This document shows, one piece after another, positions 4,428 to 45,904 of a stretch of 64,000 nucleotides of DNA. The position numbers and the translations under genes are program-made. This DNA is from Bolinopsis microptera (taxonomy: Eukaryota > Ctenophora > Tentaculata > Lobata > Bolinopsidae): assembly GCF_026151205.1 (NCBI RefSeq), contig NC_087082.1, positions 15,099,365 to 15,163,364 on the forward strand, read 5' to 3'. The notes beneath the pieces are model-generated. The model was not told where the DNA came from. It ran no database searches and was given only the letters and a program-made list of their open reading frames with translations. Every line of letters begins with the position of its first letter. The stretch's first letter is position 1.

Positions 4428-5018
4428 TCAGAAACCAAGTTATTTTGATTTTAAGTGCTGTAGTCGCAACACGCGACAGTATACAACTCAGCATTGCTAT
4501 GAATGAGAACTTTGACATTTCAACAAGACCACATTTATGTAACATTGATAAATGGACAATGATATTTAGTTTTGATATGTTTATTAAAAAAATTGTATAC
4601 TCCAGAGCAGTGGCGTAATGTCCCCCCCCCCCCCTCTAGGGGATTGAAATTAAATTATAGATCCACTATCTCCGCTGAAATAAAGCGTCCCCTGTTGGCG
4701 CCCTCCATGAAGGAGTTTGGTCTTCGTCAATTGTCAAGGAGCTTGCGGAGAGTTTCTGGAGGATTGAAGGGGAGGAGAACGTTGAGTGCGAGCAAAATCA
4801 GCTCTTAGATCTACCTTCCACTATTTCCAGCTCTACCCAGCTAACACTAGTATCATCTAATTATAGATTTTCACTAGCCTCAAGGGAACCTCTGCTCTAT
4901 CCAACTACCACCAGCAATCAGCACACAGCACCCTCAAACTGCAGCTGTTATATATGATCATTTCATTATCTTTGTTACAATGAACAATTTACATCGCTAA
5001 ACTTTCTCATGTCTTTAT
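4428..5018. other. Repeat-flanked spacer, no gene seen
   Basis: Between the 3.2-kb TIR element and the outer boundary of the large inverted arm. It contains a run of 13 C near 4621. Short open frames (for example 4572-4808, plus) show no recognisable domain. Confidence 0.3.
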
Positions 5019-5724
5019 CACAATGCTGGCAAGCATTACCGTCGCCCTTATATTCACAACACTATTTACCCCCTATACGATTATATCCCCTTTATTGTTT
5101 TCCAGGCATTAAGACTCATCGAAAGTAGTTCAGCAGGTACATTTAAGTTCAAAACATTCTAATTCAATGTTGAAGATGACAGGAATAAGAAATAGTTATA
5201 TGGAGGTTTTTAAGAAATTTGCGCAAAATACGCGCCAGCATGTTATACGAAATTAGGTAAAAAACCCAAAATCGCCATATTCAGGTGCCTTAAAAACCAT
5301 GTTAAAATTGAGTTAGAGATCTGAAACTTTGCAGGGCGTCTAGACCTTGTCCAAATCGACTGTAAAAAAAATGTCATGTTTCAGGAGTATCGGGAAGTGG
5401 GTTTTCTGGAACCCCTGTTTTACAACAGATTGTCGTGAAGATATATATATACTATATACAACTGGTTTTCTTCTCTTATAGAAAAAGGGCTCTACTAGCT
5501 GTAGCTAGGAGCATGAAATATCGGTACAAAGCAAACTATGCAAATGTCAAACTATAAGTTTCATGTTTGAAAAGCAATCTTCAGTGACATAATTAACATA
5601 AAAATGGCAAACATAATACAACACAGTGCTCCTTTATCAAATTTTATAATTAACAATTAACAATTACTCAATACTACTAAACCTATATAAATAACTACAA
5701 ATCCTAATAACTAATAAATACTAA

Positions 5725-7539
5725 CTAAATATGTCTAACTAAGAATTTCCTAGAGTGCCTACATTTAGAAATAATTTCTGATCTTTTATTAATAATGCCT
5801 GGGGTTTTAAGTATGTATAGTTTCTCGTCTAAGCAGAGGCCACAATGCCCCGCTCCAGCCTTATATTTCTTCGATTTAGTAATAATCTTCCAGTCTATGC
5901 TATATTCAATCATCTTCTCCTTGAGGTCCCATATCAATTTTGATAACTCGGTACTCAGTCTGTGCTTAGAATTCTTAAAACTTTGTCGATGATTGTACCA
6001 CCGTGTCTTAAAACTGTTTTCAGTCAATCCAATATAGGCCGTTTCCTTGTTAGATGCCGTTTTAACGGTTGCTTGGTATACTATGCATTTGGCCAGACAT
6101 TGTCCTTTGAGGGGGCACTTCGAGGCGTCTCTGCAATTACACTCTTTTTCTGGAGCTTTTTTCTTTTCAGATTGTTTCTCTAGGACTGATTTGTTGTGCC
6201 CTTTGAGTATCCTTCCCAAACTGGGCATGCAGCAATAGCTTATTTTCACGGTATTCCTATTGATGATTTTATGTAACGGTAGGTTTTTCGGGAAATGCTT
6301 ATCGATAAGAGCGAAGAACTTTCTTCCGATGTTGGTTGAAACGTTTGCACTGAATGGGGGATTGTACCATATGATGTTCCTCTTCCGCGATCTCTTTCTC
6401 TTTTTAGGCGGTGGTGTTTTATAATCGATGGTGTGACTATATCCGCTATCTCTAAGTGCCTTCTCATAATCGCTTTTGGCTTCATTTAGGCATGTCTTGT
6501 TGCTGGATATGCTTATCAATCGTGATTCTATCATTGAGGGTAAGTTCTTCAATATGATGGGAGGATGATTGGATTCTGCGTTAATGTACAATGGTGTGTC
6601 ATTTGGTTTCCTATAAGGTCTGTATGACTTGTCTGTTAGGTCGAGCACGACATCTAAGAAATCAACCGAATGCTGACAGAGATCCACCGTTATTTTTAGG
6701 CCTTCTTTTTGGAATAGTGAGTGTAGTTGCTTCCTAATTTTATCAAGACGCTGGCCGTTGGTTTTATTAATTACTGCAAGTCCGTCATCCCGGTATAATC
6801 CTAGGTACTGCTGCGGAATGATCTTTTTTATTTTGCTTAGAAGGTAAAGTCCGATTATTTCTGATGTTTCAGCTCCGTCCAAGCTTCCCATTGTGACGTC
6901 AAAGTTTGTGTCGGATTTCTTTACCCAACATTTGTTGCTGTTCATTAGAAGGGATTCCTTACTGAGTGTAATAATCTCTTGTTCATCTTCAGGGATGTGT
7001 ACTATCGTAGAAGCGTATTTTAATGCACGGTCTAGGAGATCTGCCGTGATTGATGGGTAGAATTCCTGTATGTCGAACTTTAGAAATCGTGCCATTTTTA
7101 GGTCTTTCAAGTCTTTAAACCATGTTAAAACTTCTGTGGTGCTCTTCCATAAATTGTCCCCTGTTTCGAGTTTTATTGCAGAGATCAGTTTTTCTAGGAT
7201 TTTCTTACTGACACTTCCTAAATTGGAGTTAGCGGGGTTAATTAATCTGCATTTAGTGTTGCTTGTAAAATTATCTTTGTGGTCTTTCAGTGTGATGAAG
7301 CATGGAGTTTCTGTGTAGCACTCCATCTTGTCGTCGATTTTAAGTTTTCTAGCTAGTATGTTAGTTCTTCTATCAATGTCTTCTTTTGTTCCGTTAGGTG
7401 CGACTTTGTAGTCCTTTGTGATGTTCTCGTGTAGCAGTTGGTTATATTTCTCTGGGTCTAATTGGTACAGATTTGATGTTTTATCTGCCTCTACAACAAC
7501 TTTCCCGCCTGATTTTAGTTTCTTGAGATCATTCTGCAT
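5725..7539 (-). CDS. Penelope-like reverse transcriptase with C-terminal GIY-YIG endonuclease (left copy)
   Basis: This 604-residue frame is intact. Residues about 10-45 match the start of the RT fingers (GGKVVVEADKTSNLY). FLKFDIQEFYPSI at 152-164 carries the first catalytic Asp, and YRDDG at 249-253 is the catalytic motif, with Arg in place of the commoner Ala or Met. A basic stretch KKRKRSRKR (379-387) could serve as a nuclear signal. A Cys-rich knuckle begins at 466 (ECNC, then three more Cys by 485), followed by the GIY-YIG-type nuclease: CIVYQA (485-490), AYIG (502-505), KTRWYNH (511-517) with its Arg, and a downstream Glu in LDEKLYIL. This order (RT then nuclease) is that of canonical EN-plus Penelope-like elements. 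The product would copy its RNA at a nicked chromosomal site. The N-terminus appears truncated. It differs from the right copy at one residue (Thr211 here, Ala there). Confidence 0.9.
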   Translation of the reverse strand: MQNDLKKLKSGGKVVVEADKTSNLYQLDPEKYNQLLHENITKDYKVAPNGTKEDIDRRTNILARKLKIDDKMECYTETPCFITLKDHKDNFTSNTKCRLINPANSNLGSVSKKILEKLISAIKLETGDNLWKSTTEVLTWFKDLKDLKMARFLKFDIQEFYPSITADLLDRALKYASTIVHIPEDEQEIITLSKESLLMNSNKCWVKKSDTNFDVTMGSLDGAETSEIIGLYLLSKIKKIIPQQYLGLYRDDGLAVINKTNGQRLDKIRKQLHSLFQKEGLKITVDLCQHSVDFLDVVLDLTDKSYRPYRKPNDTPLYINAESNHPPIILKNLPSMIESRLISISSNKTCLNEAKSDYEKALRDSGYSHTIDYKTPPPKKRKRSRKRNIIWYNPPFSANVSTNIGRKFFALIDKHFPKNLPLHKIINRNTVKISYCCMPSLGRILKGHNKSVLEKQSEKKKAPEKECNCRDASKCPLKGQCLAKCIVYQATVKTASNKETAYIGLTENSFKTRWYNHRQSFKNSKHRLSTELSKLIWDLKEKMIEYSIDWKIITKSKKYKAGAGHCGLCLDEKLYILKTPGIINKRSEIISKCRHSRKFLVRHI

Positions 7540-7550
7540 TTCAGAGCGAA

Positions 7551-9365
7551 ATGCAGAATGATCTCAAGAAACTAAAATCAGGCGGGAAAGTTGTTGTAGA
7601 GGCAGATAAAACATCAAATCTGTACCAATTAGACCCAGAGAAATATAACCAACTGCTACACGAGAACATCACAAAGGACTACAAAGTCGCACCTAACGGA
7701 ACAAAAGAAGACATTGATAGAAGAACTAACATACTAGCTAGAAAACTTAAAATCGACGACAAGATGGAGTGCTACACAGAAACTCCATGCTTCATCACAC
7801 TGAAAGACCACAAAGATAATTTTACAAGCAACACTAAATGCAGATTAATTAACCCCGCTAACTCCAATTTAGGAAGTGTCAGTAAGAAAATCCTAGAAAA
7901 ACTGATCTCTGCAATAAAACTCGAAACAGGGGACAATTTATGGAAGAGCACCACAGAAGTTTTAACATGGTTTAAAGACTTGAAAGACCTAAAAATGGCA
8001 CGATTTCTAAAGTTCGACATACAGGAATTCTACCCATCAATCACGGCAGATCTCCTAGACCGTGCATTAAAATACGCTTCTACGATAGTACACATCCCTG
8101 AAGATGAACAAGAGATTATTACACTCAGTAAGGAATCCCTTCTAATGAACAGCAACAAATGTTGGGTAAAGAAATCCGACGCAAACTTTGACGTCACAAT
8201 GGGAAGCTTGGACGGAGCTGAAACATCAGAAATAATCGGACTTTACCTTCTAAGCAAAATAAAAAAGATCATTCCGCAGCAGTACCTAGGATTATACCGG
8301 GATGACGGACTTGCAGTAATTAATAAAACCAACGGCCAGCGTCTTGATAAAATTAGGAAGCAACTACACTCACTATTCCAAAAAGAAGGCCTAAAAATAA
8401 CGGTGGATCTCTGTCAGCATTCGGTTGATTTCTTAGATGTCGTGCTCGACCTAACAGACAAGTCATACAGACCTTATAGGAAACCAAATGACACACCATT
8501 GTACATTAACGCAGAATCCAATCATCCTCCCATCATATTGAAGAACTTACCCTCAATGATAGAATCACGATTGATAAGCATATCCAGCAACAAGACATGC
8601 CTAAATGAAGCCAAAAGCGATTATGAGAAGGCACTTAGAGATAGCGGATATAGTCACACCATCGATTATAAAACACCACCGCCTAAAAAGAGAAAGAGAT
8701 CGCGGAAGAGGAACATCATATGGTACAATCCCCCATTCAGTGCAAACGTTTCAACCAACATCGGAAGAAAGTTCTTCGCTCTTATCGATAAGCATTTCCC
8801 GAAAAACCTACCGTTACATAAAATCATCAATAGGAATACCGTGAAAATAAGCTATTGCTGCATGCCCAGTTTGGGAAGGATACTCAAAGGGCACAACAAA
8901 TCAGTCCTAGAGAAACAATCTGAAAAGAAAAAAGCTCCAGAAAAAGAGTGTAATTGCAGAGACGCCTCGAAGTGCCCCCTCAAAGGACAATGTCTGGCCA
9001 AATGCATAGTATACCAAGCAACCGTTAAAACGGCATCTAACAAGGAAACGGCCTATATTGGATTGACTGAAAACAGTTTTAAGACACGGTGGTACAATCA
9101 TCGACAAAGTTTTAAGAATTCTAAGCACAGACTGAGTACCGAGTTATCAAAATTGATATGGGACCTCAAGGAGAAGATGATTGAATATAGCATAGACTGG
9201 AAGATTATTACTAAATCGAAGAAATATAAGGCTGGAGCGGGGCATTGTGGCCTCTGCTTAGACGAGAAACTATACATACTTAAAACCCCAGGCATTATTA
9301 ATAAAAGATCAGAAATTATTTCTAAATGTAGGCACTCTAGGAAATTCTTAGTTAGACATATTTAG
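7551..9365 (+). CDS. Penelope-like reverse transcriptase with C-terminal GIY-YIG endonuclease (right copy)
   Basis: Mirror image of the frame at 5725-7539, separated from it by 11 bp, with the same 604-residue product except Ala at residue 211. RT motifs (DIQEFYPSI, YRDDG), basic stretch, Cys knuckle and GIY-YIG-type nuclease are all intact. Neither copy has a visible promoter, because transcription would have to begin inside the opposite copy's 5' end. A transcript reading through both would fold into a ~2-kb double-stranded RNA. The extreme similarity implies recent formation or conversion between halves. Confidence 0.9.
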   Translation: MQNDLKKLKSGGKVVVEADKTSNLYQLDPEKYNQLLHENITKDYKVAPNGTKEDIDRRTNILARKLKIDDKMECYTETPCFITLKDHKDNFTSNTKCRLINPANSNLGSVSKKILEKLISAIKLETGDNLWKSTTEVLTWFKDLKDLKMARFLKFDIQEFYPSITADLLDRALKYASTIVHIPEDEQEIITLSKESLLMNSNKCWVKKSDANFDVTMGSLDGAETSEIIGLYLLSKIKKIIPQQYLGLYRDDGLAVINKTNGQRLDKIRKQLHSLFQKEGLKITVDLCQHSVDFLDVVLDLTDKSYRPYRKPNDTPLYINAESNHPPIILKNLPSMIESRLISISSNKTCLNEAKSDYEKALRDSGYSHTIDYKTPPPKKRKRSRKRNIIWYNPPFSANVSTNIGRKFFALIDKHFPKNLPLHKIINRNTVKISYCCMPSLGRILKGHNKSVLEKQSEKKKAPEKECNCRDASKCPLKGQCLAKCIVYQATVKTASNKETAYIGLTENSFKTRWYNHRQSFKNSKHRLSTELSKLIWDLKEKMIEYSIDWKIITKSKKYKAGAGHCGLCLDEKLYILKTPGIINKRSEIISKCRHSRKFLVRHI

Positions 9366-10597
9366 TTAGTATTTATTAGTTATTAGGATTTGTAGTTATT
9401 TATATAGGTTTAGTAGTATTGAGTAATTGTTAATTGTTAATTATAAAATTTGATAAAGGAGCACTGTGTTGTATTATGTTTGCCATTTTTATGTTAATTA
9501 TGTCACTGAAGATTGCTTTTCAAACATGAAACTTATAGTTTGACATTTGCATAGTTTGCTTTGTACCGATATATACTATATATATATATATATAGACGCT
9601 TTTTGCAGTCAATTGTAGCCTACATTTAAGTGTCCGTAGATTCAAAAGTATAAACGATACAGTCATCTCGAACCACAGGTTTTAAAGATAATTGTTTAAG
9701 CTTTAGTTACATTGTATTGAAAAATAATTTAACGTCATCATCATCACTTGATGACGTCATCAAGTTAAGTGTTTTTAAAACTTGACTTTTGACAAAGTAA
9801 CAACTTTTTAAATCGATTTTACACGATTAAGGAGTAATTTTATTCAAAATCTGAGGACATTTTCATCTTAGATAATTGTTCAAGAATTCCGAAAATTTAC
9901 CGGAATAGTTTCCTACCTTGCTCCTTCATAAAGATATTTGCTATTGAAGTTAGTGCTTTTTTGAAGAATAATTTTATAAAAACACAAAAGTTGTGAATTA
10001 GTATTCTCTGGTGTTGGGCCATCCCTTGGGTTGTGGAGCTCAATTTTGCTTCTTAAAGGTGTAAATTGTGTTATAGGCTAGTTTTAAAGTTAAAAATCGA
10101 AAAGTTGCACACGTGGGGACACGCCCTAATTCATTTAAAATAGCTAAAATCGCTAAAAATTTTGATTTTCACGATTTTTATCAACTTTGGAGTCCCGTTG
10201 TGATCCAAGTTCTTTTTGAAATCTTCTGAAACTTTGCATGCTTATCAAACTATATATTAAATACCACTATGCAAAAATGTACGGTGATTCAATATTGTAT
10301 GCGCACGCGACGTCCGCTCAAAGTTTGCACGTGCGAAAGGTGAGAAATTTGCTCATTCGTGATTTCGAATATATTCTGCTTTCCACGATATTTAAATGGC
10401 ATGATATATGAATTTAATGCCAACTTGAATGAGTAAAAAGTGCCATATTCAGTCGGTTATCGACAGAAATACCTAACTAAACACAAGGAAACGTTTTCAA
10501 AGGCAGAATTTCGAAATCGTCGAAATTACCTCCTTGTTAATGAAGTTTCGACTAGCTGTGTAAATTATCCTGACATTATAATCAAAAAGAGATGATA

Positions 10598-10926
10598 TTT
10601 GACCAAAACCCATAATCATGGGTAGAGTGTACCGCTGCCAGTGTCTCTCTTTTCCAAACAAAAGGAAATGATATTAATTTGAGGAACAGTCCGCTAATGC
10701 AAATTGATACCGAGAATGAAATCGGTCGCTCGCTTTTTCCATTCGATCACGGCTTACGAATTGTAATAAAGCTTATTGATTTGAAAAAGCGAGCGACCGA
10801 TTTCATTCTCGGTATCAATTTGCATTAGCGGAAGCTGTTCCTCAAATTAATATCATTTCCTTTTGTTTGGAAAAGAGAGACACTGGCAGCGGTACACTCT
10901 ACCCATGATTATGGGTTTTGGTCAAA
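10598..10926. repeat. 329-bp hairpin (foldback) at the inner end of the left arm
   Basis: It starts ATTTGACCAAAACCCATAAT and ends with the complement ending GGTCAAAT. Arms of about 135 bp flank a ~55-bp loop. The equivalent hairpin ends the right arm (22485-22815), loop in opposite orientation. It coincides with the inner limit of the arm homology, so it is either the terminus of the repeat or a foldback MITE present before the arms were duplicated. Confidence 0.8.
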
Positions 10927-12069
10927 TGTCTTATCTGAATATAGCAAATGAAAACACTGTTTAAGAATCGAAATAATAAAATATTAGAAAACAAACAAAT
11001 TGAATCTCAAAACAATTACATATAAATTAGTATATTATATAGAATGACTGTGAATATGCTGATAAGACATCATAACTGTTCTAGCTGTTGGTGAGCTAAT
11101 AGCTAGTAGTCACTTAGCGACATTAAGATAATGATTATAGACCACACATTCATACTAGAATGCTTTACACATTCAAAATTCAAGTTTTTATGATTCATAG
11201 TTAATGTTAATATTTCTACGATATAAATAATTTAAGACTATTCTCAAAAATGAAAAGTAACATAAGACTACATATTAGTTTACGTTATGAACTCTATACA
11301 TTAAAATGCGCCAGAGTCCTACTAGAAAGGTCCCATCATCAAAAAAGTTCATCAGCTTTTCTTTATTTGGTCGCAGTCTCATCTGATCTTGAGTTCCTCC
11401 ATCTTCCCGATTCTTTATCTATAAAAAAATTGTACGATCGTTATACCATGGGTTTTCCGAGAGGAATGTTGATACAAAGCTTAAATCAGTATCATTTTAG
11501 ATATTCAGTTATTAATATTGAACCTTTTCCATTGCCCAGAAATCAGGTAACATGTCAAAATATACTTAGTTAGTTAAGCACATATAATATTAAGTAAATA
11601 CTTAATACTCACTTATGTAGCGTAATTATTAAATCAGTTCCTTAAATAGTAAAAATGGAATTCAACCTCAGCTCATGTTGATGAAGTGATTCTGGTTGCC
11701 ACGTTTCCAACAGATTTTATACCGTCTTCAACTGCTACCAAACGTCCGTTTTACAGTACCTGACACTTCTGCCACAAGCAGTGGAGGGATGATATCTCTT
11801 CACTGCTTCTGTCAGCTGATTAGTTGAAATAATACTGGTAATCGTCCCACCGATTTCCAGATAATATTTTAAACTAATAAATAATTATTCATTTAGTCTT
11901 TATACCCTTAAATAACTGGCACATATTTTGTAGTCTCCTAGATACAAACATGGTGACCAGTATTTGAGGGTAATATGACCGTCTGATATTATAATAGGTG
12001 GATAAATCGATCCACTTTTTACTTAAATGTTTCACCTTAGTAAAGGATAGATCAATTAGAAATACTTAC
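10927..12069. other. Inner flank of left arm; downstream of gene A'; no gene seen
   Basis: AT-rich. A 107-codon plus-strand frame at 11250-11573 has no recognisable domain. On the minus strand, downstream of the last supported exon of gene A', I found no membrane anchor or clear terminal exon, so the 3' end of gene A' is unresolved. A short minus-strand open stretch near 11750-11880 resembles decayed coding sequence but has no splice support. Confidence 0.35.
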
Positions 12070-13090
12070 TGAAGCACTTTTCAAACCCGTAACCAGACTT
12101 GTGGCCCACTGAACAATTTTCACAAATATTGTTGTTTGAGTCATGATATGTCTTTGGTGGACAGATCTTACAGAATTCGATCCCTGTTATGAGTTTGTTA
12201 TGTTCATTTTCCGGTTCTTTACACTTAACATTTCCACCTTCGCACTAATGGGGAATTTAAGAGGGTATCAGTCAATTATTCATTAAAATGTTTAAAATAT
12301 CTAAGTAAAAACGGCGGATATTAAAGTGACGCAATTTCGATCCTCTGCAGAGTGCATTAATTTATTGACATGATGATCATGATTGCTCTGATTTTAAAGA
12401 GTTTAAGTAAACTCAAGATACAAGACAAGGTGACGTACCTTCCATTCGGTACATGTTGCTGCTTCTGTCTTTATAAAACCTGTTTCACACTTGTAACTGA
12501 TGTCAACAGTTTCTCCGTCAGACCACACATCTAGGGTAATTTAATTTGTTATGAACAGCAGTGATTGTTTTATTTGTATTTATTGTGTATTTTCATTAAA
12601 GAAGAAAACTGAACTGACATAATCTTTTTTCGAACTTCTATTCTTACCTTTAGTTTCATTAAACTCCAAGTCTTGTGGCAATTGTTCTCTTACTTTGCAA
12701 CCTGAAGGGACACAGATTAATTTATTAGAACTGTTCGTCGTTTCTATTTATTGGGTGGTTTTGTTATCACGATAAGGCTTTTCTACTTGACTAGTACAAC
12801 TGAGGAACTGGAAATTAACCAAATAGTTGTTAAGATTGTGATATAAATTTGCTAATAAGCTGTTCTAGTTGTGTATTTTTGGGATAACTCACTATTTTCA
12901 TCAAAACATTCAAACGACGTATCGTTGAATTCCATATCACCGCTCGCACCACAAGTTGCAGTAGTACTAGTAGTTGTGTCAGAAGATGGGATGTAACCAG
13001 GAGCACAGCTGACCGACACAGTCTCTCCTTCTTTCATAGTGTGACCAGTGGTTTCAAAATTAAATTGAGGGTACTGGTCCTTTTGACATG
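12070..13090 (-). CDS. CCP/sushi pair and ephrin-receptor-like Cys-rich exons of gene A'
   Basis: Exon 13090-12893 encodes a CCP module (ETVSVSCAPGYIP, then ATCGASGDMEF, then FECF) with the four expected Cys. Exons 12701-12648 and 12530-12439 together encode a second CCP (CKVREQ, VDISYKCETGFI, AATCTEWK). Splitting one CCP across two exons is common in animal genes. Exon 12244-12070 continues CEGGNVKC and then FCKICPPKTYHD...NICENCSVGHKSG, the spacing seen in ephrin-receptor-like Cys repeats; it ends at a GTAAGT donor, so at least one further exon is expected beyond 12070. Confidence 0.72.
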
Positions 13091-16000
13091 CTGAAATTGA
13101 TACAGTTAGCTGGAGATTTAAGTTACAGCTGCAAATGATGTCTTGACTGCTATGTTTACTTTCTGACTCATGATTAGATAGCTCAGTCTGTAGAGATTAT
13201 TAGGAAATAAAACCATTAAAAATTATCTTCACCTAATTTGGACTTGATCCTTACCGTAAACAGTCATCATTACATATGTGTCAGAATATGGAGAATCGGG
13301 AAACTGTCCAGATGTGACTCTGCAAGTGAAAGTTCTATCTTCTGTAACAGCGGTTCCCGTAACCTCAAGGGTAGCTGTCTGACTGTAATTAATTTCCAAT
13401 GTCCCAGATTTTGGAGTGTAGCTATTATCTTCTCCATGAGTTCCCAGCCATTCCACTTTTACTAAGCTTGTTATTCCTTTTATCACACAGGAAATAGTTG
13501 CGTCTGTACCGGATTTTACTTCAGCGTCGTTTACCGAAACATCTGAATGACAAGAAGAAATATTTAGTTAGAAAATGTTTTTGCCTGTAAAATTATCATT
13601 CAAGTAAACTAGCTGTAAGAATAATGATTAATGAAAGATCCTTGATGGATTTGATTCACGATTTATTATCATATAGCGTGATGATGAATAAAATATGATA
13701 TATAGAATAATTTAAAAACTTCGACTATTGTACCAGCTTGAAAACCCACCGTAAATATTGAGTTGGACATTTCTATTGTCGTAGTGTGAAGATCCAGGGA
13801 AGAGAACTCGACAAATGAAAGTTTTATCTTCTGTAACATCAGCTTCCTTTACTTCTAGCGTAGCCGTCTGACTGTTGTTTTCTATTGTTCCAGGGTTTGG
13901 AGTGTAGTTGTCAGCTGAAATAGTGTTACCTGATTCCAGCCATTCCACAGTTATTGGACTTGTAATTCCTGTTATCACACAGGAGATAGTGGTGTCTGTA
14001 CCGGATTTTACTTCAGCACTGTGAGCTCTCATATCTAAAATATAGATTATGAGATTATTATATTAGTTTATTTACACCATAAGGGACCAATAACTTTGGT
14101 CATGATCAATATTTTTGGTGGGTAAAGAACAAGGTTGTTAAATACGTCAAAATTTCGTGAAATAATACGACGTATTCGGTTCTTATAAAGAATACGTCGT
14201 AATACTAATACGCCGTAATACGCTGATTTGTCAAAATTTAACATTACAGCTGCGCGCCACCCTCATCATTGATCATGCATTAAAGGAGTGCTATGCAGTT
14301 ATACATGATAACTTAAATTTGTAATCAAATTTCATGGATAATCCGATAAGCAAACAATTTTTTGCGCGCACGACACACCTTTTCGTAATACGCCAATTTT
14401 CGAGGATTAATACGTATTCGTATTCCAATACGTATTCCCTCCTAATACGTATTTAACAACCTTGGTAAAGAACATCTGGGAGATTTTACTTTAAGAGAAA
14501 ACATCATTTAAAAACCAATTTTCGTGATCAACCATATCGAGACTAGGAGACTAAAATGGTATATAGAAGTACGTTAAGCAGTTATGACGCGAAATTATAG
14601 CAAATCAGCACTCACCAGTACATTGGAGGCCATCTTCTAAACCTTGCGAATCTATCATGAATACACCTGTCTGTCCCTGAGAGGTGCAGGTAACAGTTTC
14701 CCAATCGCTGGCATCGTTCTTGCAGCTGACTAGAATCTCTTGGTTAAGGTCTACCGGTCCAAAAATCTCCTCGTTATCGTTACTAGTTTTGAAGACGTTA
14801 TATCTGTCAGCAAATTCTGAGGTGTTGCAACCCCCTGAAATGTGATTGTTTATCATAACAATGAAGAAACGCCGAAATGTTGGATATTGATTTGAAATGA
14901 TATACTGTAAACCAGGGACAAAAGGAAATCGCGGCATGTGCGGAATCGCGATTTTCCCATTATTTGCGACAAATTTTATGTGTAGTCTGTTAATTAAATA
15001 TCGCGGTATTGCGATTTTTGGGCAAAATAATCGCGATTTTCTTTTGTCCCTGCTGTAAACTGTTTGATCTTATTAGGAATAATTTCTCAGCAATTATTTT
15101 ACGATTAGATACAATCTGTGATATCACAACTAGAAAATATATTGATCTAAAAGTTACCTGTTTGATATCTGTATTGCACTGATACTTTATCCTGTTGGTT
15201 TGGGTAAATTGGGTAAATTCCGACAAATCTTATTCCTCTCAACGTACTCTTCATAGCACATCTCCTTATATAAGCACCGTTATCCTCATAGACCCAGGTG
15301 ACCTCCAGAACACCATCGAACCAGACTTGCAGCTGAGTGGACGTTTTCAGGAATGTCATAACACCAGCTCGTTGGAGAAATCCTTCTGTTCCTTTTAATT
15401 CGTAGCTGCATTGTTGCAGCGTTCACTTTTTATTGTGCTTGCAGTGAATCTAAGACTAAACCAGTCTATTCCCCTCATCGTCCATTGGATATCGTTACTA
15501 GCATCTATCTTTTTGTCAGTCCTGATCTGGAACCTTTTACCCTCCACTATCTCGGTTATGAAATTGCCCCTGTCTGCATCTGCAGGAACTGGGATCCACT
15601 CACTATACTGAGTATCTAGGGAGATATAGAATGATCAGTTTTGGAATTATGTCAAATGTTAAACACTAAATTAAAAAAGATGAAATTATCAAAATAATGA
15701 CAGAATTAACATACAGGACACTATGTTTTGCCATTTGAACCACACATTTCTTTCCGTGTTTATTATTATAATTTCCGTCAATAGGAAGGCCTGCATTCTC
15801 AGAAACTTAATCTTACTCTCCTCTATCAGAAAACATCATTTAAAAATCAATTTTCATTATCAACCATATCAAGACAAAGAGACATAGAACGGCAATAACA
15901 TTATTTTTGGAGACGATGATGATTTATAAGTTTATATACTATAATACAGATCTAAATATAAGGAACTCTAAATAAGTGGCTGTAACATTAAAATTTAATA

Positions 16001-19000
16001 ACGACACTGTTTCTCCTGTTCAGATCAACTAACATGACGTGCTATAATGTATAGTTTAACTTTGCGTTTCTGTCTTTTAATGTACAGTTTTTTACCCTAT
16101 TTTTGCTTTATAGATTTATCAAAATTATAAAACGTTTTTAAGGTATGTTGCCACTAAGAAGCTGAGTAATGGTCAGAGTTAAAAGCTTCTTCGTTTGTGT
16201 TTTTGATACCCTATTAACCTCCTCTCCTTATACATAAAAAGTTTGTAACTACTGATTCCAGTTTATAAATATCGTTTTTATGATAAGAGCAGCATACCAA
16301 TAGTCTGAGACGAAACGGAATCTCGTTAGCTTTTCGTGTTAAAAGCGATTTCTCAACGGTTATCACCTCTCAAGATGATTCTTAAAACATTTGGCCACTA
16401 TTGCATTTTTGAAATAAATGCAATAGTGGCGTTTTCGGCCACACCCTTTTTCAGGGTTTCGCGGTCACTCGAATTTGTGTATTTCAGTCCAGGAAGGTCT
16501 TAAAGACTATTCCGATACACCAAAATGTGCCTAATAGACACATTTATATACAACTTATGAAGCAACATATACCTTAAAATGCTTCGTTTCGGAAATATGG
16601 TCGAAAAACGGTTTTTGGATTGACGCAGTCCATAATTTCCATGATTTTTGGCATTCCCGCCTAGGAAGGTCGTAGAGACTATTCTGATACACTAAAATGT
16701 ACATAATGGCCACATTTATATACAACTTATGAAGCAACATATACCCTAAAAGGCTTATTTTCCGAAATGTGGCTGAAAAACGGATTTTTGCCGAGCGAAC
16801 AATGACAATATTCACAAATGGGCTATTGGACTGTTAACCAGAACGGTCTTAAAGACTCATGAGCAACATAGCATTTGTCACAAGATGTAAGATGAGTCAC
16901 TTTGTATCCAGAAACACCTACAAAAATTGGAGAATGATCTACTTTATTGGGCATCTCTCTTAATTAAATGGGCCAGGCCAGCAGCATATTTGTGTCTTAC
17001 GAAAGGGCGATTTTTCAATTACGGTTTCTTTAGTAAAGGTCAATGGGTCAGTTGCTAACAGTAAATTGTTCGCAATTGCCGACTCATGCACATCATATAC
17101 TCAAAAACGCTCACTTTAGGAGTGATTAGTAAATAAGTTTAACTACTGCATGATTTGTGAAAACTCCAACAATTTTTTATTGGCACCAATTTAGCCAAAA
17201 TGTAATGACCAAAATTCAACTTTCTATTTATTCATGCCATGAAACTTAACCATGATATGTGCTAAGAATACCGGACCTAAAATAATTCGGCACTGTTTCC
17301 GGGCCAGATTGTTGCTTGACCACTGACCAGTACTTCAGAATGACCCCATATCCTTTTTTTCAGTCGCATAGATTTTCCCATCGTATGATAATGCGTGTCA
17401 TTAACTGGCTAGTTCTTCTGTTATTACAGCAGTGAGCTGCCTCGAGATCTTATCTGGGGCATTGGCACAAATACTAGAACATTAGAACTGTAATTCTAGA
17501 ACCTCAAATAAAGGTTACTTGGCAGAATAGCATTATCAGGGTTCGAGATTTGACTGAGGGCATTCAGGTAACATACCAGGTTCATATCACCAGTTGAGGT
17601 GAATCTTATTTTCGGCATGCAATGCCTTATAACTATAAGTTATAAGATTATAGTAGGATCACGGGGTTTATATAATAGAAGGTCTCGAGATGCTGATTTG
17701 GCTATTTAGGTTTTACATGTGAAATTTTTCCAGCTGTGGGTAAAGTGGATTTTAGAGCGGGGAGGGGGTCTTAATGACCAAAATCTGAACGATCTCTTAC
17801 TTACGGGACACTACAGGACAAGGGACGGATCTCGGGCCTAATAGCTGGAGTTTGCACCTAGATGGTCAACGTGAGGATAGCATGAGGATTTAGGATGCTC
17901 TGCCTGCCTTTCATAAGGCCTTGTAACCCCGAAAGCTGGTATATCTTATCTAAATTAACCTTGGTTACATCCCGTGCTGTTCCGAATATATAATTTGATT
18001 TATAGGTCCAATATCAAGCAAAAAGTCTGATCTCCGACGCGAGGATCTCCGAACTCCGATCTTAAAGTTGAATCTCAGAGCCAAAAAGAGGAACCTAAGC
18101 CTTGGTTCCTCTCTTTGAGAGTCAAGCAGGACGGTGTTATCAACTCAAAGTCGGATTCGTAGCACAATTGAAAACCAAAGAATAAAAATCTTAATGAATT
18201 TCCCGACATCCTAAAATTAATATCAGGTCGTATTCGATTCAGTGGCCCAAACTCCAATAGGTTACAAGACTTAAGTTCAAGTCGAGGAACACTTTGATTA
18301 AGCATGATCCTTGTCTAGTTGGAATTTTCGCATATCATGCAGTAGTTATCTACTAATCACTCCTAAACTGAGCGTTTTAGAGTCGAATCTCGAACCCTGC
18401 CAGGCCATGCGGCCAAGTAATTTTAATCTGAAGTTCTTGAATTATAGTTCTAATGTTCTAGTACTAATGTATTAGTGCCCTAGATAAGATCTCGAGGCAG
18501 CTGTAATAACAAAAGAGCTAGCCAGTAACCACTTGATTAAAAACGAGGAAATGACACACATTATCATACGATGGTAAAATCTATGCGAACCAAACCACTG
18601 CGGTATTATTGAACTGCGGCCAACAGATCTCAAACCAAGGATTACAGACCAATATTGGTCGAGACAGCAAAATCAATCATAATTTCAAAGTGGCGTACTG
18701 GTCAGCGGTCAAGCAACAATCTGGACCGGATCCAGTGCCGATTTATTTTAGGTCCGGTATAGTATTCTTGGTACATATATCATGGCATAAATAAATAAAA
18801 AGTTTGAAGTTGAATTTTGGTCTGGCACATATTATATTTAAAAATTAAATTGGTGCCAAGGAAAAATTGTTGGAGTTTTCACAAATCATGTAGTAGTTAT
18901 TTACTAATGACTCCTAAAGTGAGCGTTTTTGAGTACATGAGGTGCATGAGTCGCCAATTGCGACCAATTCTCTGTTAGCTGCCGACCCTTTGACCTTAAG

Positions 19001-20970
19001 AAACCGTAATTTTGAAAAATCGCCCTTTCGTAAGACTCAAATATGCTGCTGGCCTGGCCCATTAAGAGAGTTGCCCAATAAAGTAGATCATTCTCCATTT
19101 TTTGTAGGTGTTTCTGGACACAAAGTGACTCATCTTACATCTTGTGACAAATGCTATGTTGCTCATGAGTCTTTAAGACCGTTCTAGTTAACAGTCCAAT
19201 AGCCCATTTGTGAATATTGTCATTGTTCGCTCGGCAAAAATCCGTTTTTCAGCCACATTTCGGAAAATAAGCCTTTTAGGGTATATGTTGCTTCATAAGT
19301 TGTATATAAATGTGGCCATTATGTACATTTTAGTGTATCAGAATAGTCTCTACGACCTTCCTAGGCGGAAATGCCAAAAATCACGGAAATTATGGACTGC
19401 GTCAAGCTAAAAACCGTTTTTCGGCCATATTTTCGAAACGAAGCATTTTAAGGTATATGTTGCTTCATAAGTTGTATATAAATGTGTCTATTAGGCACAT
19501 TTTGGTGTATCGGAATAGTCTTTAAGACCTTCCTGGACTGAAATACACAAATTCGAGTGACCGCGAAACTCTGAAAAAGGGTGTGGCCGAAAACGCCACT
19601 ATTGCATTTATTTCAAAAATGCAATAGTGGCCAAATGTTTTGAGAATCATCTTGAGAGGTGATAACCGTTGAGAAATCGCTTTTAACACAAAAAGCTAAC
19701 GAGATAGCCTTTTAGAACGGTTGGGATCCGACTACAAAGTTATCATATTCATAATAACCTGTTTGATATCTGTAGTGTGTTGAAACTTTGTCCTTGTTAT
19801 CTCCGTCATGAGCATGGAACTTTAATCCGGATAGTGTGTTCCTCATCGCGCATTTTTGAGTTCCATCCTTGTCTTCATAGACCCAGGTGACTTCCAGAAC
19901 ACCATCAAACCATATTTGTAGTTGAGTTGACGTTTTCAGGAATGTCAGAACACCAGCTTGTTGGAAGAAAGGTGCTTCTTCATTTAGGGAGTCAGAGCTC
20001 CCACCACACCTACCGGCATTTATTACCGTTGTGGTAAATGTGAACCAGCCTATTCCCCTCATCATCCATCGGATATCGTTATCAGCATCTATCTTCTTGT
20101 CAGTCCTGATCTGGAACTTTTTACCCTCCACTATCTCGGTTATCAAAGTGCCCCTGTCCGCATCTGCAGGAACTGGGATCCACTCACTATACTGGGTATC
20201 TAGGGAGATATAGAATGAATAATGATCAGTTTTGGATTTATGTTAAATGTTATTGTTAAACACTAAATTAAAAAAGATGAAATTATCAAAATAGTGACAG
20301 AATTATCATGTCATGTGTAAATACGGGACACTATGTTGTGCAATTTGAACCACATCAGACCATTTATTTCCGTATTATTATATTTTCCGTCAATAGGAGG
20401 GCCTGTTTCCTCAGAAACTTAATGGGTAAGGGTAAAGGTAAGAGTAAGGGTAAGTGTTTGAACTTTTACCCCTAGGAAACGTCGTACCCACCATGAAACG
20501 TGATCTTGTACACCTGGTTTGCATAGCCTCCACCTTCACCATCACCTTTACATGCATTCGACTCTCCATATTTATTGTAGGTTTCTTCTGCATCTGTTGC
20601 ACTTGCACACCAACCTCCAGCCTGTATAGCAAATACTCTGTATCCAAAGAACAATGCTGCCTTGAGGCACTTTTCATACGCATCAGTTCTTGATTCGTAA
20701 TTATCTTTGAGTAGATCGTGTTTCTTTTCAATCGGCTGTATAGCTCTATCTCCTCTATCTTTCCAGCAACCAAGATTCTCTGTGACCACCTCTGATTCTT
20801 CAGCTGACAATAAGTACTTTAGCAACTGTGACATACAGTCAGAGAAAGTTTTAATTGTCAGCATTTTGATGTTATACTATAATACAGATTTAACTTAACT
20901 AACCTGTTGCAGACGCCGATCCAATGATCATCAGCAGTAGAAATATACCAAGCTTAACGTTGCCTGTCAT
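12070..20970 (-). CDS. Gene A': multidomain Ig/CCP secreted or surface protein (11 exons located)
   Basis: Exons on the minus strand: signal peptide 20970-20904 (LGIFLLLMIIGSASA); Cys-rich GGYANQVYKI domain 20803-20492; beta-rich domain 20199-19759; a degenerate copy of that exon 15615-15158; CCP-like 14834-14616; Ig 14034-13750; Ig 13542-13255; CCP 13090-12893; split CCP 12701-12648 and 12530-12439; Cys-rich CKICPPKTYHDSNNNICENC module 12244-12070. Donor and acceptor dinucleotides and reading phases agree throughout. Every junction is phase 1 except the last (phase 0), so modules can be skipped or duplicated in frame. The protein would enter the secretory pathway; the Ig and CCP content resembles recognition or complement-like proteins, but no ligand can be named. 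No transmembrane exon was found. Skipping the degenerate exon would keep the frame. The third intron carries a 3.4-kb foldback element. Gene A (719-2359) is its truncated or partly visible paralogue. Confidence 0.72.
13255..14034 (-). CDS. Two tandem Ig-domain exons of gene A'
   Basis: Exons 14034-13750 and 13542-13255 each encode one Ig domain of about 95 residues, with a B-strand Cys (TTISCVITG; TISCVIKG), an EWL Trp and an F-strand TFICR or TFTCR Cys. Each begins after a D-type phase-1 join and ends in IYG or VYG before a GT donor. The two are clearly duplicates, sharing an AEVKSGTD segment and a similar TATLEV block, so they arose by tandem exon duplication. Confidence 0.8.
14131..14463. 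mobile_element. 333-bp MITE with 10-bp target duplication (Mutator-like)
   Basis: Termini AAGGTTGTTAAATACGT and its complement are flanked by the direct repeat GGTAAAGAAC (14121-14130 and 14464-14473). The interior is rich in AATACG units. TIRs with a 9-11 bp duplication suggest a Mutator-like non-autonomous element. It sits in the intron between the CCP-like and first Ig exons of gene A'. Confidence 0.82.
14913..15052. mobile_element. 140-bp hAT-like MITE with 8-bp target duplication
   Basis: Starts CAGGGACAAAAG and ends in the near-complement CTTTTGTCCCTG, flanked by the 8-bp direct repeat CTGTAAAC (14905-14912, 15053-15060). CAGGG-type ends and 8-bp duplications are diagnostic of hAT elements. 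It lies in an intron of gene A'. Confidence 0.85.
15158..15615 (-). pseudogene. Frameshifted duplicate of the beta-rich exon in gene A'
   Basis: Parallel to exons 719-1168 and 19759-20199, with the same acceptor context (CTCCCTAG) and a GTAACT donor. It retains LQVWFDGVLEVTWVYED and VQYRYQT. Between the WTMRGIDWF part and the LQRAGVMTFLKT part the reading frame changes near 15395-15415, where a stop follows if one frame is kept, so the exon is probably inactive or skipped. Its flanking intron is also duplicated (15616-15830 resembles 1169-1380 and 20200-20420). Confidence 0.7.
16320..19705. mobile_element. 3.4-kb foldback element
   Basis: Ends ATCTCGTTAGCTTTT at 16320 and the complement at 19705. 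Arms of about 1.2 kb (16320-17560 and 18380-19705) flank a loop of roughly 0.8 kb. Each arm contains a near-perfect small hairpin around GCCACTATTGCATTT (16392-16429; mirrored near 19596-19632) and two tandem ~180-bp subunits sharing CACATTTATATACAACTTAT and GAAGCAACATATACC. No transposase frame. It is inserted in the intron 53 bp from the donor of the exon at 19759. No clear target duplication. Confidence 0.85.
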
Positions 20971-22484
20971 TTCTAAAAAGATGGAAAATGTTAGATAATC
21001 ATCTTTAAAATTATACGAGATACAGTAAATGGGAGCCAATTACTGTACTGGATATCTGCTGAATATTGAAATAGGATTTTCAACAGCTCGAAATATATAA
21101 AATGGAGGCGAGTGATGATTCAGATTGATGATTGATGAAGGGTGTTTTGTTCGAATCAACCACTTCTCTGAGTGTGTAACTGCTACACGTTGGAATTCAT
21201 ATTAGTGTAGGAGAACACTGAGTTACAACATTTGCTATTTGAGTCGACAACTATTGGAGCGCACGCAAAGGCAAAGGTTAAAGGTTCACTACTAGACTGA
21301 GACATTAGTCAACACCTGCAGCTTCTCTTTCTAAGCCGCGAGCTTTCTTCGGCTAGTACAATAGAGCTATAGGATTTATGGACACAACATTAGCTCAGAC
21401 TAATGAACAATATTTTCGAGGCCAAACAAATCTCACTGCTTCTACTTTGAGCTAATATTATGTCTAATATTTTGCACATGATATTGTGTACTAGAAGTAG
21501 AGGGGGCCGGGGGCGCATCTTTTTTATTGTAGATCACCAGTAAAATACTTGCTGCTGGGCTCTCAGATCATAAAGCAAGATGGTTAAATAAACCGTAAGC
21601 TACGAATAATGAAGCCCAATAGATTTTGAGCATATATGCTATAGATTCGTTATAGCGTTTAGTAATTTGGTTTTTCGTCTAGAAAAGGTGGGTCATAAAA
21701 ACGACCCTATCGTCCCTAATGGGTTAATGTTACCGTACGATTTGTGCTTTGTACTAGACACTTGTATAATTGTAGAGCATTCGTCACTTAGTGAATCGTT
21801 AGAAGAACCTTATGATCAGTGATCTCGAAGTCAGCAGTCAGGTCACCAATTCCTATGATGAATCAGAAGTTTGAATCCCCTTCCGTCTCTTTTAATTTTA
21901 AGGAGAGTTGTATTTGGAGAACCCCTTGAGAATTAGTTCTGATAAATAAAATAACGATCATTAGGTCAAAAATAAACAGCAATAAGGTGCACATGGTGCT
22001 AAGTTAATAGTTATCGATTAATATGTTCGAAAATAACAAAAAATACAGCTGTAGTCTGTACAGTGTACAACAATAAAAAAAAACCGGAATTTTCGGGACC
22101 AGATCCCTTGAGGACTGCAGAGAAGCTGTCACAATTGATGCGCGAAACCGAATTAGAAAAATGAGAACTATGGTGATCTGACAAATAAAATTCCAGTCAT
22201 TAGGTTAACACCAGGCCACAGGTGGTGCGAGGTGTCGCTAACTAAATTTATACAAAAAGATTATACAGTAAATTCATAATCAAACTTTATTGCATCCCGT
22301 CAACTTGAAACATGAAAACAACGAAAATAGATTAGGGAAATAAACTGCTGCATATTTTTGGTGGGGATCAGCAGTGTTTTCTAGCGCTAATATTTAAACT
22401 TGAAATTGTTTTTATACTAAAATGCGAATGGTTCCGTTGCTGAAAATTTTTCGATCTCATATGACATATATTTTATATAAACAA
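20971..22484. other. 5' flank of gene A'; no gene seen
   Basis: Region between the gene A' start codon and the right arm, so it should contain the promoter. Two diverged copies of an AATAAAAT...CATTAGGT...GGTGC motif lie near 21945-22010 and 22180-22240. Near 21880 there is a tRNA B-box-like AGTTTGAATCC without a convincing tRNA fold. Nothing else is recognisable. Confidence 0.35.
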
Positions 22485-22815
22485 ATTTGACCAAAACCCA
22501 TAATCATGGGTAGAATGGACCGCTGCCAGTGTCTCTCTTTCCCAAACAAAAGGAAATGATATTAATTTGACTGACCGTTCTCAAATGCAAATTCATACCG
22601 AGAATGAAATCGGTCGCTCGCTTTTCCTATATTCAATAAGCTTTATTACAATTCGTAAGCCGTGAATGAATGGGAAAAGCGAGCGACCGATTTCATTCTC
22701 GGTATGAATTTGCATTTGAGAACGGTCAGTCAAATTAATATCATTTCCTTTTGTTTGGGAAAGAGAGACACTGGCAGCGGTCCACTCTACCCATGATTAT
22801 GGGTTTTGGTCAAAT
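22485..22815. repeat. 331-bp hairpin (foldback) at the inner end of the right arm
   Basis: Counterpart of 10598-10926. It begins ATTTGACCAAAACCCATAAT and ends in the complement. Several substitutions relative to the left hairpin appear in both of its own arms (for example GACCGTTCTC here against CAGTCCGCTA there), so each hairpin is more self-complementary than the two are alike. Confidence 0.8.
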
Positions 22816-24131
22816 ATCATCTCTTTTTGATTGTAATGTCAGAGTATTTTATAAAGTCGAAATATAAACTGATATCTTCATTAATAAAGAGGAAGTTTCA
22901 ACAATTTCGAAATTTTTCCTTTAAAAACATTTCCTTGTGTTTAGGTAAGCATATCTGTCGATCACTGATTGAATATGCAACTATATAATCTATCAAGTTG
23001 GCACTAAACTCAAATATAATGTCATTTAACTGTCATGTTACTGTTAAAGCAGGAACTAAATCTAATCGAAATAAAGAGAGTGAAGTTCTCACTTTTTGCA
23101 AACTTTGAGCGGACGTTGCGTGCGCATCCAATATCAAATCACCGTAAAATTTTGAATTTTCGTATTTCTTATGTATTTTAATAAGTGTGCAAAGTTTCAG
23201 AATATTTTAGCAAGAACTCGCATCACAACGGGACTCCAAAGCTGATAAAAATCGTGAAAATAACAATTTTCAGTGATTTTAGCAATTTTCTATCAATTTG
23301 GGCGTGTCCCCACGTGTGCAACTTTTCGATTTTCAACTTTAAAACTAGCCTATAACACAATTTACACCTTTAAGAAGCAAAATTGAGCTCCACCACCCAA
23401 GAGATGGCCCAACACCAGAGAATACTAATTCACAACTTTTGTGTTTTTATAAAATTATTCTTCAAAAAAGCACTAACTTCAATAGCAAATATCTTTATGA
23501 AGGAGCAAGGTAGAAACATTTTTCGGTAGATTTTTAGAATGCTTGAACAATTATCTAAGAAGAAAATTTGCTCAGATTTTGAATAAAATTATTCCTTAAT
23601 GGTGTTAAATTGATTTGAAAAGTTGTTATTTTGTCAATAATCAAGATTTAAAAACGCTTAATTTGATGACGTCATCAAGTGGTGACGATGACGTTAAATT
23701 GTTTTTTGATATAATGTAAACTAAAGTGTAAAAGATTATCTTCAAGACCTATGGTTGGAGATGACTGTATCGTTTATACTTTTGAATCTACGGACACTTA
23801 AATGTAGGCTACAATTGACTGCCAAAGCGTCTATACCACTATACTATACTTCACGACAATCTGTTGTAAAACAGGGGTTCCAGGAAACCCACTTCCCGAT
23901 ACTCCTGAAACTTGAAATTTCATTTACACTCGATTTGGTCAACGTCTAGACACCCTGCAAAGTTTCAGATCTTTTACTCATTTTTAACGTGGTTTTTAAG
24001 GCACCTGAATATGGCGATTTTGGGTTTTTTACCTAATTTCGTATAACATGCTGGCGCGTATTTTGCACAAATTTCTTGAAAATCTCCAAATAACTATTTC
24101 TTATTCCTGTCATCTTTAACATCGAATTAGA

Positions 24132-24236
24132 ATGGGGGTAAGCAGTAAGGGGGGTAAATAGTAAAGGGGGTAAATAGTAGAGGGGGTAAATAGTAAAGGT
24201 GGGTAAATAGTAAAGGGGGTAAATAGTATTAGTATT
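24132..24236 (+). repeat. GGGGGTAAATAGTAAA-type minisatellite
   Basis: Five or six irregular units of about 17 bp, GGGGGTAAATAGTA(AA/GA), in the right arm. The left arm has only a short version near 5071-5097, so the expansion followed separation of the arms. Confidence 0.75.
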
Positions 24237-24409
24237 AAGCATTTAGAGTTCTGTAAAACTACAATTGTAACTGCAGTTTTACAGAACTCTAAATGCTTAA
24301 TGAACACTCTTGCAGGTACCACCCGTATTCACACTCAGACCTGAGTTTAGTCATTTTCCGATACGAGATTGGGGACGGGTTCTATAAACAAACAAACAAA
24401 CAAACAAAC
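24237..24409 (+). mobile_element. SINE-like insertion with hairpin head and CAAA tail
   Basis: Flanked by a perfect 16-bp target duplication AAATAGTATTAGTATT (24221-24236, 24410-24425). The 5' end is a hairpin (24237-24298) with a 24-bp perfect stem, starting AAGCATTTAGAGTTCTGT, and a 14-nt loop. The 3' end is a run of CAAA repeats. Length 173 bp, no ORF. Target duplication plus repetitive tail indicates mobilisation by a non-LTR element; no Pol III A/B boxes were identified. A related copy is at about 238-394. Confidence 0.85.
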
Positions 24410-24479
24410 AAATAGTATTAGTATTGTGAATATAAGGGCGACGGTCATGCTTGCCAGCATTGTGATTTGCGATCCAAAT

Positions 24480-44500: not shown

Positions 44501-44708
44501 TAAAGATATTCGACAAACAAGAAAGGTGGTAAAAAGTGGTAAAGTGGCAAAAAGTGGCCTTAAGACACGTGGAAAAGTTTGGAAAAGTTGGTCAGCCATA
44601 AGGGACATCTATTAGGACTCAAAAACGTCAAAAATCCTTTGTAAGCTTTGTGTGTCGGCAGATCGATTTTTTCAGACGGATCTGTCTGTACTACTGGGGA
44701 AGTGATAG
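41597..44708. repeat. 3.1-kb palindrome with ~1.2-kb arms
   Basis: Left arm 41597-42815 is the reverse complement of 43490-44708 (for example ACAGACAGATCCGTCTGAAA at 41613 and its complement near 44673). The arms differ by few bases (TCGACACACA against TCGGCAGATC contexts). The 674-bp centre contains 42818-43105, a diverged direct repeat of 42487-42745. ORFs at 41694/44408 and 42700/43384 are mirror images and not genes. No target duplication was identified. Confidence 0.85.

Positions 44709-45904
<1,196 letters not shown>

What the first reader, a model, noticed from the sequence alone, without database searches (positions are those of the whole stretch)
5019..24471. 19.5-kb inverted-repeat structure enclosing a complete-looking multidomain gene
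Matching inverted arms of about 1.76 kb (after removing later insertions) bound gene A', whose paralogue gene A lies just outside. Either a very large TIR element has captured a receptor-like gene, or two opposed copies of one repeat happen to flank it. Both arms stop at the same kind of hairpin on the inside and at ATCACAATGCTGG on the outside. If it is one mobile unit, it would be a carrier of Ig/CCP genes and could drive their copy number.
Basis: partly seen in the sequence, partly recalled or inferred. Interest (0 to 1): 0.75.

Follow-up and report, generated by a model that had tools for sequence, protein, structure and literature searches.

The report
Two stray repeats flanking a gene
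The apparent 19.5-kb inverted-repeat unit around a gene is most likely two separate insertions of a common 1.8-kb mobile repeat that landed in opposite directions, not a gene-carrying element.

Summary
The arms are real: 5019-10925 (split by a later 4.1-kb insert) and 22487-24464 (split by a 174-bp insert) are opposed copies, 86% identical, of one ~1.78-kb non-coding repeat. They are not one mobile unit. (1) The repeat is abundant: its 5'-end pattern has 1749 places and its palindrome-end motif 2802 (two expected per intact copy) in the 265-Mb genome. (2) The arms belong to different subfamilies, each 97-99% identical to copies elsewhere. (3) Each arm has two empty sites of its own at paralogous loci on the same contig. 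(4) One paralogous stretch has the right insertion while the matching left site 10 kb away is empty; its inner part was not read. (5) No scored place joins the outer flanks. (6) The closest gene relatives found lie in one cluster, while the repeat is on all 13 large contigs. The repeat resembles non-autonomous Helitrons/Helentrons, but no autonomous partner was found and junctions are not all clean. Side finding: the left arm's insert is a head-to-head palindrome of what looks like a Penelope-like retroelement; 21 of 37 detected loci of it are oriented so, an arrangement already described for Penelope.

The parts
5017..10927 (+). Left arm: one copy (subfamily B) of the ~1.78-kb repeat, element 5019-10925 flanked by AT at 5017-5018 and 10926-10927; interrupted by 5459-9570
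   Evidence: 39 other copies at 99% identity listed
22485..24466 (-). Right arm: one copy (subfamily A) in the opposite orientation, element 22487-24464 flanked by AT at both ends; interrupted by 24237-24410
   Evidence: 10 other copies at 97-99% listed; insertion edge shared with C11:15436327
5009..5015 (+). ATGTCTT, first copy of the target duplication of the left arm
   Evidence: empty sites L083 and L085 hold it once; junctions printed
10926..10932 (+). ATGTCTT, second copy of the target duplication of the left arm
10597..10927 (+). Terminal ~331-bp palindrome of the left arm (3' end of the element)
22485..22815 (-). Terminal ~331-bp palindrome of the right arm (146-nt arms, 39-nt loop)
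   Evidence: (I9)
5459..9570 (.). Penelope-like retroelement (assigned by motifs read by eye and by structure) inserted in the TA-rich stretch of the left arm: head-to-head palindrome (2025-nt arms, 5-nt centre, 5518-9572) plus a ~59-bp tail on the left
   Evidence: 12-bp repeat ATATACTATATA at 5447-5458 and 9571-9582, in TA-rich sequence
24237..24410 (+). 174-bp (AAAC)n-tailed short retroelement-like insert in the right arm; 15-bp target duplication AATAGTATTAGTATT at 24222-24236 and 24411-24425
   Evidence: a second copy of its sequence at 245-388
12852..20876 (-). Open frames of host gene A' (Ig matches at 13229-14062, weak WSC match at 20472-20876), not carried by the arms
16313..19712 (.). 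Separate 3.4-kb inverted-repeat element inside gene A', with near-identical copies on other contigs
   Evidence: I4; 100% at C9:4672433-4675867 and C4:8844867-8848300

Best explanation
The structure is two independent insertions, in opposite orientation, of copies from two subfamilies of one high-copy non-coding repeat, on either side of gene A', a member of a local gene cluster. Shown: the arms differ in subfamily, each has its own empty sites, and one paralogous stretch has the right insertion edge with the left site empty. Inferred: the repeat is a non-autonomous rolling-circle-type (Helitron/Helentron-like) element. It has fixed ends, [AT]CACARTGCTGGCAAGCA...GGTCAA[AT], an inverted repeat able to form a small hairpin about four bases inside its 5' end and another about ten bases before its 3' end, inserts at AT-rich sites including its own internal TA repeat, and is moved by enzymes supplied in trans. 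The gene's copy number comes from local duplication, not from transport by the arms.
For: Copy number: 884 + 865 5'-end places (up to 2 mismatches, reversed-pattern control 0) and 1402 + 1400 palindrome-end places (up to 3 mismatches, control 0). Subfamilies: right arm 97-99% to 10 other listed copies over nearly all of its 1421-base inner part, left arm 99% to 39 other listed copies, against 86.5% between the arms. Empty sites: right at C11:15092206-15092611 and C11:15412604-15412976, left at C11:15425829-15426222 and C11:15594970-15595224, all spanning the joined flanks, and the junction of each read. Right insertion edge at C11:15436027-15436479 (98%) while the left site at C11:15425829 is empty. 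No scored hit spans the joined outer flanks. Listed DNA matches to the non-repeat parts of gene A' all lie on C11 between 15.40 and 15.61 Mb. Repeat type: AT at 63 of 63 5' junctions and 46 of 46 3' junctions (see report for bias); potential hairpins; 41 Helitron Rep-domain matches in the genome.
Against: The paralogous stretch may be a mosaic of two duplications: its left flank is 88% identical and its right flanks 100%, and an exon between them only 59%. On contig C1, convergent 5'-end pairs 3-10 kb apart outnumber divergent ones 8 to 1; the one pair read in full, L081, is three copies nested in one another, the other seven were not read in full. For the class: the hairpin z-scores are weak (-0.6 to -1.7); the left arm has a 7-bp duplication and an extra T; nested copies L024 and L003 carry extra AT-rich bases (read by eye); flanks of 16 solo copies show no consistent duplication; no Rep gene was found next to the element's ends, though only about 1.5 kb on either side of the Rep match at 20 of the 41 places was checked.
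Confidence: 0.95

Rival explanations
1. One 19.5-kb TIR transposon captured gene A' and moves as a unit.
For: Both arms have matching ends in inverted orientation and enclose one gene.
Against: Arms 86.5% identical to each other but 97-99% to copies elsewhere; separate empty sites; right insertion edge without the left; no scored outer-flank junction; the left arm's 7-bp duplication lies on either side of that arm alone.
Confidence: 0.01
2. The two insertions are independent, but the repeat is not a rolling-circle element: it is a non-autonomous retroelement, moved for instance by a Penelope-like reverse transcriptase, whose variable AT-rich 3' flank is a tail and whose variable duplications are target-primed insertion scars.
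For: Variable duplications and extra bases at junctions; Penelope-like frames also sit in TA-rich stretches of the repeat (window 5459-9570; L054, recognised by eye); Penelope ends are reported to integrate unrelated sequence in trans (PMC3846280, passages).
Against: The right arm's junction is clean to within an AT dinucleotide; both ends were located cleanly in 24 of the 29 other loci, though that search favours long copies; no BLAST match between the Penelope-like insert and the arms.
Confidence: 0.2
3. One insertion, later duplicated in inverted orientation to give the second arm.
For: Opposed copies of one family close together.
Against: The arms belong to different subfamilies and each sits in its own target, empty in paralogues.
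Confidence: 0.01

Closest known systems
HINE / DINE-1-like non-autonomous Helentrons (PMC4067079, passages read)
   Same: High copy number, no coding capacity, a palindromic sequence a few bases from the 5' end, a palindrome near the 3' end, internal tandem repeats, AT/T-rich targets, clustered copies
   Different: Here a ~331-bp palindrome forms the 3' end, junctions fall at AT rather than TT, some junctions carry duplications or extra bases, the paired sub-terminal repeats of HINEs were not established, and no autonomous partner with shared ends was found
Penelope elements of Adineta vaga (PMC3846280, passages read)
   Same: For the insert in the left arm: head-to-head inverted copies, a short tail at one end, short target duplication
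   Different: Here the two arms are often of nearly equal length, giving near-perfect palindromes (6 of 14 simple pairs within 7%, a limit chosen after seeing the lengths); no profile library confirmed the protein family

Membership tests
Single large TIR transposon with cargo | Both inverted termini inserted together, one target duplication at the outer ends | tested here: not met
   Separate empty sites for each arm; no scored outer junction
Single large TIR transposon with cargo | Terminal repeats identical or of one lineage | tested here: not met
   Arms in different subfamilies
Helentron / HINE | Stem-loop near the 3' terminus | tested here: inconclusive
   Predicted 6-bp stem followed by 11 nt including the terminal AT, in both arms; z-scores -1.0 and -0.7, with 32 and 40 of 200 shuffles folding as well
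Helentron / HINE | Palindromic sub-terminal repeats at both ends | tested here: inconclusive
   5' stem about 4 nt inside the end (z -1.7 and -0.6); its outer pair is G-C 59, A-T 37, G-T 4, A-C 0 of the 100 places listed (counted by hand; possibly few events). The matching repeat near the 3' end was not tested
Helentron / HINE | Insertion without target duplication at a fixed dinucleotide | tested here: inconclusive
   AT at the junctions seen; clean for the right arm, 7-bp duplication for the left arm; flank similarity of 16 solo copies no better than mismatched pairs
Helentron / HINE | Autonomous partner with Rep/helicase and the same termini | tested here: inconclusive
   41 Rep-domain matches, but only about 1.5 kb on each side of 20 of them was checked and no shared ends were seen
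Penelope-like element (insert in left arm) | Reverse transcriptase and GIY-YIG endonuclease in one ORF | tested here: inconclusive
   612-aa open frame; no Pfam match, weak reverse-transcriptase match E 0.0025, far below its cut-off, no useful match among solved structures; YRDD and GIY-YIG-like motifs read by eye and recalled
Penelope-like element (insert in left arm) | Head-to-head inverted copies, optional tail, short variable target duplication | tested here: met
   21 of 37 detected loci oriented head-to-head, 16 of these with both outer ends at the element's 3' end; tail 5459-5517 and 12-bp repeat for the window copy only

The most novel reading that the evidence does not exclude
The 1.78-kb repeat belongs to a single-strand-type transposon group in which hairpins at both ends and a ~330-bp terminal palindrome define the element, AT is the junction on both sides, and its own internal TA repeat acts as a landing site that produces stacked self-nests; some of the convergent pairs 3-10 kb apart would then be compound elements able to move together, though the pair in the finding is not one of them.
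Probability: 0.12. Interest if true: 0.5.

Novelty: new member of a known kind. Interest (0 to 1): 0.22.

Why it matters
It removes a false lead: this pair is not a carrier of Ig-type receptor genes and does not explain their copy number. The repeat family is nevertheless useful, because its self-nesting and the local gene duplications give natural empty sites from which its insertion chemistry can be read. The Penelope-like insert offers a genome in which near-symmetric head-to-head pairs recur, so that the self-priming model proposed for that retroelement group (PMC3846280, passages) could be tested.

Tried and rejected
Single-unit model: tested by flank junctions and rejected. Direct or inverted similarity between the flanks of 16 solo copies (of 30 loci; 14 dropped as the window itself, nested, adjoining or with an unclear end): no better than mismatched pairs (mean 5.0 against 4.7 direct, 4.6 against 4.7 inverted). 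An idea that the repeat targets the centres of palindromes came from L026 and L003 and was dropped after that test. Rfam at gathering thresholds: nothing in the window. Rep loci as autonomous partners: no shared ends in the roughly 1.5-kb flanks of 20 loci. Paper searches for Penelope with twin priming and GIY-YIG found none, for Penelope-like elements with head-to-head two; some searches were seen as listings only. Whether this repeat family is already in a repeat library could not be checked, as none is held here; the novelty grade is therefore provisional.

Full report
What is there. The window is C11:15099365-15163364 of an unnamed 265-Mb genome in 232 contigs. The inverted arms exist as described. 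The left one runs on the + strand from CACAATGCTGG at 5019 to GGTCAA at 10925, the right one on the - strand from 24464 to 22487. The left arm is interrupted by 5459-9570 and the right arm by 24237-24410; without these they are 1783 and 1789 nt long and 86.5% identical over 1758 aligned columns. Each ends on the inside in a palindrome of about 331 bp. The stop-to-stop frames of at least 100 aa that touch the arms are the two of the insert in the left arm and one, 24351-24668, that runs from the right arm into its flank.

The repeat is common. A search with 1421 bases of the right arm gave 2157 candidates, of which 40 were scored. The 5'-end pattern with up to two mismatches has 884 + 865 places and the reversed control none; the palindrome-end motif with up to three mismatches has 1402 + 1400, two being expected for an intact palindrome, and the control none. 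Of the 30 loci brought in, one is the window. By my reading, 17 of the other 29 show a single copy within about 1.5 kb, and 12 show copies nested in or adjoining one another, often at an internal TA-rich stretch near element position 617. Both ends were located cleanly in 24 of the 29; 23 of these measure 1.77-1.83 kb and one, L007, 2.5 kb. The search favours long copies. L081 is a three-deep nest: a plus copy holds a minus copy, which holds a plus copy. L049 and L060 show both kinds of end close together and may be shorter derivatives (matches).

The two arms have different origins. Over its 1345-base inner part, the left arm is 99% identical to 39 other listed copies. The right arm is 97-99% identical to 10 other listed copies over nearly its whole 1421-base inner part. 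The two differ from each other by 13.5%. Two ends of one recently moved element should instead be each other's nearest relatives. Copies listed together lie on all of C1-C13 and on some small contigs.

Each arm has its own empty sites. A query made of the joined flanks of each arm found places that run straight through the junction: for the right arm C11:15092206-15092611 (92%) and C11:15412604-15412976 (89%), for the left arm C11:15425829-15426222 (88%) and C11:15594970-15595224 (85%). A further match, C12:3237980-3238190, passes the right junction by only 12 bases and was not read. About 200 bases around each of the four junctions were read and aligned. At the right arm the empty site reads AAACAAATTTGCGATC, so the insertion is clean apart from an AT that can be given to either side. 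At the left arm the empty site reads CTCATGTCTTATCTG, and the filled site holds ATGTCTT on both sides of the arm (5009-5015 and 10926-10932) with one extra T. That duplication encloses the left arm alone, not the 19.5-kb interval.

One paralogous stretch has the right insertion without the left. C11:15436027-15436479 matches 300 bases of the right arm's inner flank plus the first 151 bases of the arm at 98%, followed by rearranged palindrome pieces; the 200 bases on each side of the arm are found there at 100%, 2095 bases apart against 1982 in the window. The left site about 10 kb before it, C11:15425829-15426222, is empty. A query that joins the outer flanks, as the single-unit model requires, has no hit across the junction among 42 matches from 40 scored candidates of 302.

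The gene is a member of a local cluster. In one search, the listed matches to the non-repeat parts of window 11200-22480 lie at C11:15406401-15412801, 15427857-15430114 and 15599632-15606567; the other listed matches fall on the 3.4-kb element at about 16300-19740 inside the gene. That list is incomplete: it was cut, and it does not even show the window's own place. A protein search with one exon gave 31 matches: nine on C11 between 15.10 and 15.61 Mb (59-100% identical, the query itself included) and 22 elsewhere, on other contigs or other parts of C11, at 39-63%. Close copies are thus local, whereas the repeat is spread over all large contigs.

Is the pair expected by chance? With 1749 copies, about 29 convergent pairs 15-25 kb apart are expected at random placement. 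On C1, using the 96 listed zero-mismatch 5' ends, convergent, divergent and same-strand pairs within 25 kb number 12, 3 and 24, against 2.2, 2.2 and 4.4 for random places, so copies cluster; against orientation shuffles the 12 are not unusual (mean 9.9, reached by 1434 of 5000). At 15-25 kb the counts are 1, 1 and 5. Pairs 3-10 kb apart are lopsided, 8 convergent to 1 divergent. The one read in full is a self-nest, and inverted self-nesting predicts convergent pairs; the other seven were not read in full. The rest of the genome was not listed and so not tested.

What the repeat is. All 63 distinct 5' junctions examined read AT before CACA; about half come from loci found with a pattern that includes this AT. 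Of 49 sequences printed after GGTCAA, three are inner edges of palindromes that the filter let through; the other 46 all begin with AT. Folding predicts a stem about 4 nt inside the 5' end and a 6-bp stem followed by 11 nt, the AT included, at the 3' end, but with weak z-scores of -0.6 to -1.7. Among the 100 places listed the outer pair of the 5' stem is G-C 59 times, A-T 37, G-T 4 and A-C never (counted by hand; this may reflect few events). These features, the lack of coding capacity, the internal minisatellite (24134-24228) and the clustering agree with the description of HINE elements in PMC4067079 (passages). The genome has 41 matches to the Helitron Rep domain, 40 of them over the cut-off. 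Against this stand the long terminal palindrome, duplications or extra bases at some junctions, the weak fold scores and the missing autonomous partner. I put the Helitron/Helentron-type reading at about 0.55, a retroelement-type reading at about 0.2, and leave the rest open.

The insert in the left arm. 5518-9572 is a palindrome with 2025-nt arms and divergent 612-aa frames, flanked by ATATACTATATA on both sides. No Pfam family matches it; a retron reverse transcriptase model matches weakly (E 0.0025); the assignment to Penelope-like elements rests on motifs that I recognise by eye and on structure. A genome search with one arm scored 40 of 82 candidates and gave 66 matches at 37 loci. In 21 a plus piece is followed by a minus piece, that is, head to head; in 16 of these both outer pieces begin at the element's 3' end. 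One locus is a mixed arrangement and 15 show one orientation only. Arm lengths correlate over the 17 loci with both 3' ends, the mixed one included (Spearman 0.68, p 0.003). I kept 14 simple pairs and dropped three with large gaps or mixed order: 6 of 14 have arms within 7% in length, where shuffled pairing gives 0.9 on average and reached 6 in 1 of 20000 shuffles; without the window's own pair, 5 of 13, reached in 5 of 20000. The 7% limit was chosen after seeing the lengths, and lengths of 2025 are capped by the query. PMC3846280 (passages) reports head-to-head as the most frequent inverted arrangement in Penelope and suggests self-priming, so the kind of structure is known; near-equal arms fit that idea.

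Verdict. This is an ordinary encounter of two copies of an abundant repeat, with some interest in the repeat itself.

Noticed in passing
window 5459-9570; loci listed: A Penelope-like element many of whose insertions are head-to-head pairs, some with arms of nearly equal length (near-perfect palindromes).
   Followed up: partly
window 16313-19712: A 3.4-kb element with ~1-kb inverted repeats inside gene A', 100% identical (rounded) to copies at C9:4672433-4675867 and C4:8844867-8848300, so probably recent.
   Followed up: partly
window 24481-25408: A repeat next to the right arm matches arrays of about 366-bp spacing on C2, C3, C4, C5, C6, C9 and C10.
   Followed up: no
window 34462-35775, 41608-44694: Two more near-perfect inverted repeats (651-nt arms with a 12-nt centre; 1209-nt arms with a 669-nt centre).
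   Followed up: no
L054 2012-3022: A different Penelope-like frame (recognised by eye) in the same TA-rich stretch of another copy of the repeat.
   Followed up: no
window 24237-24410 and 245-388: A short (AAAC)n-tailed retroelement-like insert with an internal hairpin; a second match to it in the window.
   Followed up: no
window 45356-45902: A pure CA repeat of about 273 units.
   Followed up: no
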